This document shows, one piece after another, positions 24,129-25,972 of a stretch of 64,000 nt of DNA. A model generated the notes under the pieces. The model ran no database searches. It was not told where the DNA came from and worked only from the letters and a program-made list of their open reading frames with translations. The stretch is from contig NC_015948.1 in assembly GCF_000223905.1 (NCBI RefSeq), positions 1,612,001 to 1,676,000 on the forward strand, written 5' to 3'. The stretch is from Haloarcula hispanica ATCC 33960 (GTDB taxonomy: Archaea; Halobacteriota; Halobacteria; Halobacteriales; Haloarculaceae). How positions within the stretch are numbered: the first letter of the stretch is position 1; each line of letters begins with the position of its first letter. A program made the position numbers and the translations under genes.

Positions 24129-24183
24129 CGACAGTAATGTGCTCGGTCAGGGATTTGAACCCTGGTCCTCGGCTTGAAAGGCC
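24129..24183 (-). repeat. Duplicated 3' half of tRNA-Glu (att-like direct repeat, distal copy)
   Basis: This 55-base stretch equals 25918-25972 at 54 of 55 positions. It covers the tRNA-Glu 3' part (T arm, variable loop and 3' half of the anticodon arm) plus about 11 bases beyond the 3' end. The single difference lies in the anticodon-loop region. The 5' half of the tRNA is missing here, so it is not a tRNA gene. This is the usual footprint of integration into a tRNA gene. Confidence 0.85.
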
Positions 24184-24490
24184 TTCCGTAACCGCAGAGT
24201 GACCATTTGTTTCGAGCACACCCAAATCCACCCAATTGCGTTTTTTCGTCGCTACTAACAGCTAATGTACAGGGAGTACTTGAACCAACCTGCTGATTGT
24301 CCATCAGCCAAGTTCGATTGGGAGGTGTGTCTGGTTTTAATTCCCACACAAATGGCAGTCGGGACTGGTTCGAGAGCACCTTCTCAGAACCAGTCCGGCT
24401 ATACTGACTTCAAAATAAAGAAACCACGATTTCTGAAACTACGATTTCCAAAATCGGGAGTTCTATTGTATTGGGTATGGTACTGCCTGT

Positions 24491-25873
24491 ATGGCGCAAT
24501 TCGTTGACCGGGATATCGAACTCGAGAAGCTAACAGACTGTTACGAGTCTGTGACGGCGGATTTCGTCGTAATCTACGGCCGTCGCCGCCTCGGTAAGAG
24601 CGAACTCGTCCGCCAGTCCATCGCTGATCGGGACGACGCCGTATACTACCAGGCAGTCGAGTCCACGGCACCGAACCAACTCGAACAGTTCGTCGACACT
24701 GCAACTGCGCAGTTCCCGTCACTGCGAAACGTCCGCCGTGATTGGGAAGCACTCCTAGAAACACTCGGCGAAGAGGACGCCATTATCGTCATCGACGAGT
24801 TCCCGTTCCTCATTGAGGAGGACGAATCGCTCCCGTCACGGATACAGCGAGTTTGGGACATGAAGCTACAGGAGACGGGGATGACACTCGTGCTCGTCGG
24901 CTCTTCGATCAGCGTTATGGAGGACAAGGTGCTTTCCGGGAGCGCGCCGCTGTATGGACGCCGGACAGCAACAATCGATCTCAAGCCCCTCGAAGTAGTC
25001 GATGCGCAGCAGTTCTTCCCGGAATACGATCCCGAAACCGCAATCACCGCGTGGTCGATCTACGGCGGGACTCCGTATTATCTCCAGACTATCGATCCCG
25101 ACCAGCCGTTAGGAGCGAACGTCCAGCAGACAGTTCTGTCGGAGCGCGGGCTTCTGTACTCAGAACCGGAATTCCTTCTCCGCACCGAACTCCGGCAGCC
25201 GAACACGTACTTCAGTATCCTCCGCGCACTTGCTCATGGGCGTCGCACTCCGAACGAGATCGCGGGCATGGCCGGCGTGGATTCGGGGTCGCTCAGTACG
25301 TACTTACAGAAGCTTCGTCGACTCCGCCTCGTTGAACGCCACATCCCCGTCACTGAATCACCGAGGACCTCGAAACGCGGCCGGTACCGCATCGCTGCGC
25401 CGCTGTTCCGGTTCTGGTTTCGATTCGTCTACGGGAACCAGGATCAGCTTCGCATGCTCGGCGCCGATGCGTACGACAAACTCGTTGTGCCCGAGCTAGC
25501 GGATTACGTGAGCCCGTTGTTCGAACGCCTCTGCCAGCGAGCGATTCCAGACCTTATCGACCGGCAGTTCCGTGATGTCGGGCAGTGGTGGTTCAAAGAA
25601 CACGAGTTGGACATCCTCGGTCTCTCAGATAGGGGACTCGTTGCTGGCGAGTGTAAGTTCACCTCTCAGCCGGTAAGCGAAGGCGTGCTCTCTGATCTTG
25701 AACGAACCACGGAAGAAGTCCGGTGGTCAGGAGAACCAGCCGAGGAAGAGACGCTGTACGTCTTGTTCAGCCGCTCCGGATACACTGACGATCTCGAACG
25801 CGTCGCTGACACCCGCGATGACGTGCTTCTTTTCGAACTTTCAGATCTGGTAACAACTAACAGCACCTCGTGA
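24491..25873 (+). CDS. Archaeal-type ATPase with DUF234/nuclease-like C-terminus
   Basis: A 460-residue protein of the archaeal AAA (arCOG/MJ-type) ATPase family. Walker A is YGRRRLGKSELV near residue 30; Walker B is AIIVIDEFPFLIEE near 98; GSSISVMED is sensor 1. A winged-helix segment follows (RTPNEIAGMAGVDSGSLSTY). The C-terminal part is DUF234: RFWFRFVYGNQ..., and WWFKEHELDILGLSDRGLVAGECKF, a PD-(D/E)xK-like arrangement (E-x-D then ExK). Such genes are frequent in archaeal mobile regions. It is the only gene between the two tRNA-Glu repeat copies. Confidence 0.88.
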   Translation: MAQFVDRDIELEKLTDCYESVTADFVVIYGRRRLGKSELVRQSIADRDDAVYYQAVESTAPNQLEQFVDTATAQFPSLRNVRRDWEALLETLGEEDAIIVIDEFPFLIEEDESLPSRIQRVWDMKLQETGMTLVLVGSSISVMEDKVLSGSAPLYGRRTATIDLKPLEVVDAQQFFPEYDPETAITAWSIYGGTPYYLQTIDPDQPLGANVQQTVLSERGLLYSEPEFLLRTELRQPNTYFSILRALAHGRRTPNEIAGMAGVDSGSLSTYLQKLRRLRLVERHIPVTESPRTSKRGRYRIAAPLFRFWFRFVYGNQDQLRMLGADAYDKLVVPELADYVSPLFERLCQRAIPDLIDRQFRDVGQWWFKEHELDILGLSDRGLVAGECKFTSQPVSEGVLSDLERTTEEVRWSGEPAEEETLYVLFSRSGYTDDLERVADTRDDVLLFELSDLVTTNSTS

Positions 25874-25917
25874 ACGCGATCCACTCCCCACACAGTAGTG
25901 ACTTACGAGTTTGTTCG

Positions 25918-25972
25918 CGACAGTAATGTGCTCGGTCAGGGATTTGAACCCTGGTCCTCGGCTCGAAAGGCC
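25918..25972 (-). repeat. att-like direct repeat, proximal copy within tRNA-Glu
   Basis: The copy that overlaps the intact tRNA-Glu 3' half; partner of 24129-24183 (54/55 identity). The interval from one copy to the other is about 1.8 kb and carries only the DUF234-type ATPase gene. Confidence 0.85.

What the first reader, a model, noticed from the sequence alone, without database searches (positions are those of the whole stretch)
24129..25972. tRNA-Glu 3' half duplicated around a lone DUF234-type ATPase gene
A 55-base repeat with one mismatch, one copy inside an intact tRNA-Glu, frames 1.8 kb carrying only an archaeal ATPase with a nuclease-like C-terminus. This is the footprint of tRNA-targeted integration, but no integrase is present. 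The element may move using a helper, or be what is left of a larger island. The ATPase family recurs in mobile DNA and could be a defence gene.
Basis: partly seen in the sequence, partly recalled or inferred. Interest (0 to 1): 0.6.

Follow-up and report, generated by a model that had tools for sequence, protein, structure and literature searches.

The report
Stripped-down tRNA-site island with candidate defence gene
In a salt-loving archaeon (Haloarcula), a single putative antiviral gene sits in the shrunken remains of a mobile DNA island that once inserted itself at a tRNA gene and has since lost its own insertion enzyme; the class of element is known, but this case shows clearly how such an island decays to one retained gene.

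Summary
A 55-bp repeat (1 mismatch; 65 bp at 94%) of the tRNA-Glu(TTC) 3' half and its downstream flank frames 1.7 kb holding only an intact ATPase gene. Sister genomes (G006, G027, G019) show the empty site: their left flank runs straight into the single tRNA. Full-size relatives were found. Haloarcula genome G008 carries a ~62-kb island at the same tRNA-Glu(TTC), with two integrase genes beside the tRNA. Its far end is 84% identical over 190 bp to the window's left copy plus 136 bp of element interior. Halobellus rarus (~5 kb) and Halomicrobium katesii (~18 kb) carry ~90%-identical ATPases inside tRNA-Glu(CTC) islands whose adjacent integrases are 98.7% identical. The window kept the far end and the ATPase but lost the integrase end, and its genome has no integrase of this family. 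So it is most likely an immobilised remnant, not a helper-mobilised element. The ATPase (ATPase_2 + DUF234, PADLOC PDC-S27) has intact Walker and PD-(D/E)XK motifs and dN/dS ~0.07, so it is a working gene and probably a defence gene, untested. An 86-bp MITE interrupts the left flank. New member of a known kind.

The parts
25928..26003 (-). intact tRNA-Glu (anticodon TTC), the integration target
   Evidence: ARAGORN
25908..25972 (-). right copy of the repeat (attL-like): tRNA 3' half from the anticodon loop plus ~20 bp beyond the tRNA 3' end
24119..24183 (-). left copy of the repeat (attR-like), 3' half only; 55-bp core 24129-24183 with one mismatch
24184..24319 (+). retained far end of the ancestral island; with the left tRNA copy 83.7% identical over 190 bp to the G008 island end; motif TTGTCCATCAGCCAAGTTCGATT at 24297-24319 recurs in islands of other families
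24417..24490 (+). upstream stretch conserved with the ATPase gene in close homologues elsewhere (likely promoter/leader)
24491..25873 (+). ATPase_2-wHTH-DUF234 [PD-(D/E)XK] protein, 460 aa, PADLOC PDC-S27; sole cargo gene
25886..25927 (.). inner flank of the right copy, homologous to the genus-type DNA downstream of tRNA-Glu and closer to G010/G002 than to sister species; the integrase end of the island is missing here (only ~34 bp between the ATPase stop and the repeat)
24035..24120 (.). 86-bp MITE with inverted ends (TIR arms 24034-24052 / 24103-24121), a later independent insertion beside the left repeat

Best explanation
The 1.7-kb segment is the remnant of a larger tyrosine-integrase island that inserted into the anticodon-loop/3'-half region of tRNA-Glu(TTC). 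Insertion rebuilt an intact tRNA at one end (25928-26003) and left the displaced 3' half at the other (24119-24183). An internal loss then removed the integrase end and nearly all cargo, leaving the far end (24184-24319) and one intact, constrained gene. That gene encodes a STAND-like ATPase fused to a PD-(D/E)XK nuclease domain, most likely a single-gene antiviral (PDC-S27) system that senses infection and cuts nucleic acid. Shown: the repeat, the empty site, the shared island end, full-size relatives with integrase and a close homologue of the ATPase, absence of that integrase family in this genome, purifying selection on the gene. Inferred: the deletion step itself, loss of mobility, the defence function.
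For: Repeat and tRNA. Empty site in G006, G027, G019: left flank to 24036 joins directly to the single tRNA. G008: tRNA-Glu(TTC) at C1:826918-826992, partial copy at C1:888662-888710, two integrase genes beside the tRNA, and an end homologous to window 24132-24319, 83.7% over 190 bp; helicase, Mrr and UvrD/PDDEXK cargo. The same end motif near tRNA-Glu fragments in L204, L205, L207; in L205 a relative of the integrase lies on the other side of the tRNA half, i.e. an attP layout. Halobellus rarus L091 and Halomicrobium katesii L168: ~90%-identical ATPase inside tRNA-Glu(CTC) half-repeats with adjacent integrase PF00589, 98.7% identical to each other. No such integrase in G000; no convincing integrase fragment in the element. 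Gene intact: invariant G35 K36, D102 E103, D374 and near-invariant E372, E387, K389; dN/dS 0.066-0.081; AF2 pLDDT 92.7 with best PDB matches 2qen, 2fna and STAND/NLR ATPases. PDC-S27 HMM E 4.7e-46.
Against: The right copy's inner flank is not an island-type arm as in G008. It resembles the native downstream flank of tRNA-Glu from another Haloarcula lineage, so a simple integrate-then-delete history is not fully sufficient; gene conversion or recombination with a foreign tRNA locus must be added. No genome was found with a larger version that has both the G008-type end and the ATPase at tRNA-Glu(TTC). Defence activity is untested.
Confidence: 0.82

Rival explanations
1. A non-autonomous, still mobile integrative element (an integrative counterpart of a MITE): attP plus one defence gene, moved in trans by an integrase of another island.
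For: Compact, bounded on both sides by tRNA halves, intact cargo. Related integrases are common in the genus (14 of 32 genomes), so helpers could arrive.
Against: No helper of this family in the own genome. No second copy with these ends among 392 genomes of the order or 145 relatives. Close ATPase homologues have only the gene plus ~75 bp upstream in common with the window, not the element ends. The integrase-side arm is missing on the right.
Confidence: 0.08
2. The ATPase gene was captured by homologous or illegitimate recombination between tandem copies of the tRNA 3' end plus flank, such as exist in G010 and G023, without any integrase acting at this locus.
For: Tandem tRNA-Glu 3'-end fragments without genes occur next to the tRNA in G010 and G023. 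The right inner flank is native-flank-like.
Against: The left copy reaches the anticodon loop and is followed by 136 bp of true island end shared with G008 and other families, which the tandem fragments lack.
Confidence: 0.07
3. Chance or a decayed tandem tRNA duplication with an ordinary chromosomal gene between.
For: Only the tRNA resemblance of the left copy.
Against: The gene and one repeat are absent at the orthologous place in all 20 relatives compared; chance about 1e-22.
Confidence: 0.02

Closest known systems
Haloarchaeal tRNA-targeted islands with adjacent tyrosine integrase, e.g. Haloquadratum walsbyi GI3 and the Hfx. volcanii HVO_2815A / Hgm. borinquense / Nab. magadii tRNA-Glu cases (PMC3119063)
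   Same: Intact tRNA at one end, 3'-end fragment of the same tRNA at the other; that paper reports integrase next to tRNA-Glu and a truncated copy 5-48 kb away. Same target class, and G008 fits that description.
   Different: Here the integrase and nearly all cargo are gone; 1.7 kb and one gene remain. Whether the integrases of PMC3119063 and of G008 are the same subfamily was not tested.
Haloquadratum 6.7-kb tRNA-Thr remnant (PMC3119063)
   Same: Partial tRNA duplication, no integrase nearby, interpreted there as a remnant of a prophage or integrative plasmid.
   Different: It contains many pseudogenes; the window segment keeps one intact, constrained gene and has a matched full-size relative at the same tRNA.
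Halobellus rarus (L091) and Halomicrobium katesii (L168) tRNA-Glu(CTC) islands
   Same: Carry a close homologue of the ATPase between tRNA-Glu 3'-half repeats, same orientation.
   Different: Different tRNA-Glu isoacceptor, integrase present, extra cargo (HhH-GPD glycosylase, small ORF).
PDC-S27 putative single-gene defence candidate (PADLOC; surveyed in archaea in PMC12988326)
   Same: ATPase fused to a PD-(D/E)XK domain; HMM E 4.7e-46.
   Different: Family unvalidated experimentally; here it is the sole survivor of an island.

Membership tests
tRNA-targeted tyrosine-integrase island (haloarchaeal) | Direct repeat of the tRNA 3' part, with intact tRNA at one end | tested here: met
tRNA-targeted tyrosine-integrase island (haloarchaeal) | Uninterrupted site with a single tRNA in relatives | tested here: met
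   G006, G027, G019
tRNA-targeted tyrosine-integrase island (haloarchaeal) | Integrase gene next to the tRNA | tested here: not met
   No integrase ORF and no convincing fragment between 24184 and 25927; hence filed as a remnant, not as a functional member
tRNA-targeted tyrosine-integrase island (haloarchaeal) | Element end shared with integrase-bearing islands | tested here: met
   83.7% over 190 bp with the G008 end; motif in L204-L207
tRNA-targeted tyrosine-integrase island (haloarchaeal) | Excised circle | not testable with these tools
   needs reads or PCR
PDC-S27 defence candidate | Sequence match to the PADLOC models | tested here: met
   PDLC04984 E 4.7e-46, residues 1-354
PDC-S27 defence candidate | P-loop ATPase plus PD-(D/E)XK nuclease domain with intact catalytic residues | tested here: met
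   the nuclease assignment rests on motif, conservation and predicted topology, since the top Foldseek hits are ATPases and none shown is a nuclease
PDC-S27 defence candidate | Antiviral activity | not testable with these tools
   none published for the family in the paper read (PMC12988326)
SSV-type split-integrase insertion | Integrase fragments at the element ends | tested here: not met
   tblastn of the integrase set finds nothing convincing
MITE / IS insertion | Terminal inverted repeats bounding the ATPase segment | tested here: not met
   inverted repeats bound only the 86-bp element 24035-24120, not the ATPase segment

The most novel reading that the evidence does not exclude
The segment is a minimal, still mobile tRNA-site cassette carrying one defence gene, excised and inserted by integrases of co-resident islands, i.e. 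an integrase-dependent satellite for single defence genes in haloarchaea.
Probability: 0.07. Interest if true: 0.6.

Novelty: new member of a known kind. Interest (0 to 1): 0.3.

Why it matters
It is a well-resolved case in which empty site, full island and stripped remnant can all be seen at one tRNA-Glu gene within one genus. It shows that a putative single-gene antiviral system can outlast the island that brought it. It also links the PDC-S27 ATPase to tRNA-Glu and possibly tRNA-Val islands across several haloarchaeal families, giving a concrete gene and concrete genomes in which to test a candidate defence system that is common in archaea and untested.

Tried and rejected
Rejected: chance repeat; IS or MITE transposition of the ATPase (TIRs bound only the small MITE); split integrase of SSV type; helper-mobilised element as first choice (no integrase in the own genome; no copies elsewhere).

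Full report
Observation. The window contains one ARAGORN tRNA, tRNA-Glu(TTC), at 25928-26003 on the minus strand. Its 3' half, from the anticodon loop on, plus about 20 bp beyond the 3' end, is repeated at 24119-24183 (65 bp, 94%; 55-bp core 24129-24183 with one mismatch). Between the copies the only gene-like ORF is 24491-25873 (+), 460 aa. The finding is therefore correct as stated.

Extent of the repeat. The DNA inside the right copy (about 25886-25927) is homologous to the native DNA downstream of tRNA-Glu in the genus, so the duplication really runs some 40 bp past the tRNA. On the left this is obscured by an 86-bp inverted-repeat element, 24035-24120, with about 40 places in this genome and absent at this place from relatives: a MITE that landed later, independent of the island.

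Empty site. Twenty loci at the orthologous place were taken from same-genus genomes. In G006, G027 and G019 the window's left flank runs to 24036 and then continues directly into the single tRNA. None of the 20 has the ATPase there. The ATPase family is found in 16 of the 32 genus genomes searched, and outside the window always at other places. Gain of the gene and of the second repeat at this site coincide.

Full-size relatives. (a) G008, same genus: tRNA-Glu(TTC) at C1:826918-826992 and a 3'-half copy at C1:888662-888710 enclose about 61.7 kb. An integrase gene and a second one lie next to the tRNA. Cargo includes ResIII helicases, an Mrr-type nuclease, UvrD fused to PD-(D/E)XK, a PDC-S01-like ATPase and others. 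The end next to the partial copy matches window 24132-24319 at 83.7% over 190 bp, so the window keeps the far end of an island of this kind. G008 itself has no copy of the ATPase. (b) The same end motif occurs near tRNA-Glu fragments in genomes of other families (L204, L205, L207). In L205 an integrase lies on the other side of the tRNA half, the layout expected of attP. (c) Halobellus rarus L091: a close homologue of the ATPase (89% identity) lies in a 5.1-kb element between a 42-bp exact copy of the tRNA-Glu(CTC) 3' half and the tRNA, with a PF00589 integrase beside the tRNA. (d) Halomicrobium katesii L168: the same element type, 17.6 kb, with a 56-bp perfect repeat and an integrase 98.7% identical to that of L091. 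Integrases of this family in the genus usually sit beside tRNA genes (16 of 19 loci examined).

What was lost. In full islands the integrase begins within a few hundred bases of the tRNA 3' end. In the window only 34 bp separate the ATPase stop from the right copy. No integrase fragment is recognisable in the element, and the own genome has no integrase of this family at E below 1e-10. The segment is best read as a remnant stranded without its enzyme.

An unresolved detail. The right inner flank is closest to the tRNA-Glu flanks of G010 and G002, while the outer left flank is closest to the sister species G006 and G027. The right end therefore seems to come from another Haloarcula lineage. In a simple integration this flank should be island-specific, as it is in G008. 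Gene conversion between the two ends, or recombination with a foreign tRNA locus that at the same time removed the integrase end, would explain it; this step is inferred only.

The gene. Pfam: ATPase_2 (residues 4-200) and DUF234 (309-392), with weaker winged-helix matches at 239-284. PADLOC: PDC-S27, E 4.7e-46; a survey of archaeal defence describes PDC-S27 as an ATPase fused to a PD-(D/E)XK member, 3503 cases in archaea, without experimental validation (PMC12988326). In 33 aligned homologues G35, K36, D102, E103 and D374 are invariant and E372, E387 and K389 nearly so. The AlphaFold2 model is confident (mean pLDDT 92.7); its C-terminal beta-beta-beta-alpha-beta order with ExD and ExK fits a PD-(D/E)XK fold. 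The nearest solved structures are archaeal ATPases 2qen and 2fna, with ORC/Cdc6 and STAND/NLR proteins further down the list; none of the matches listed is a nuclease, so the nuclease assignment rests on motif and topology. dN/dS against close homologues is 0.066-0.081: the gene is under constraint. Homologues with 72-91% identity occur across haloarchaeal families and on haloarchaeal plasmids, sharing with the window only the gene and about 75 bp upstream. In Halorubrum salsamenti the gene lies next to an Mrr nuclease, a methylase and a tRNA-Val. A defence role is likely but not shown.

Comparison with what is known. Haloarchaeal islands of this kind, including integrases next to tRNA-Glu with a truncated copy 5-48 kb away, and a 6.7-kb integrase-less tRNA-Thr remnant, were described in Haloquadratum (PMC3119063). 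Archaeal attachment sites that reach from the anticodon loop beyond the tRNA end are also known (PMC8371274). The window locus is a new, unusually clear and extreme example of that known kind: one gene left.

Verdict. Remnant of a tRNA-Glu(TTC) integrase island with one retained putative defence gene (0.82). Mobility by a helper is not excluded but is poorly supported (0.08).

Noticed in passing
L177 (G010) 2690-3022; L065 (G023) 19065-19209; L178 (G002) 12965-13453; L083 11601-11980; L086 10523-10910: Short fragments of a tRNA 3' end (T arm plus acceptor, with the downstream flank in some) are repeated every ~110-165 bp just downstream of tRNA-Glu(TTC), tRNA-Glu(CTC) and tRNA-Val genes, in several cases with the T-loop half repeated in inverted orientation around a hairpin and without genes; in G002 a 122-nt unit is repeated four times.
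   Followed up: partly
window 24035-24120: 86-bp MITE with CTATAGT-type inverted ends, about 40 places in the own genome, many on the smaller contigs C1 and C2.
   Followed up: partly
L069 (G013), reverse complement ~17735-17885; genomes G267, G276, G278: tRNA-Glu(TTC) appears interrupted by ~30-36 nt next to the anticodon, probably an intron; ARAGORN misses it in L069.
   Followed up: no
G027:C1:1590218-1590361, G019:C6:5260-5472, G023:C8:14357-14491: Weak fragments of the ATPase family 15-18 kb to the left of the same tRNA-Glu in three relatives, possibly remains of other copies.
   Followed up: no
L205 15-1539 (G056): Integrase gene (apparently frameshifted), tRNA-Glu(CTC) 3' half and island end lie side by side inside a chromosome, i.e. 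an attP-like junction, suggesting a tandem or misplaced island.
   Followed up: partly
L056, L057 left of tRNA-Glu (about 19168 and 19148 in window orientation): G003 and G031 carry an extra ~1.5-kb ORF (509 and 479 aa, lipoprotein-like start) between the left flank and the same tRNA, without a second tRNA half; G021 has an insert of similar length (1.7 kb) there whose content was not read. The site varies by other means too.
   Followed up: no
window 29643-30431 minus: IS605/OrfB-type transposase-like ORF (262 aa) near the right of the region; not examined.
   Followed up: no
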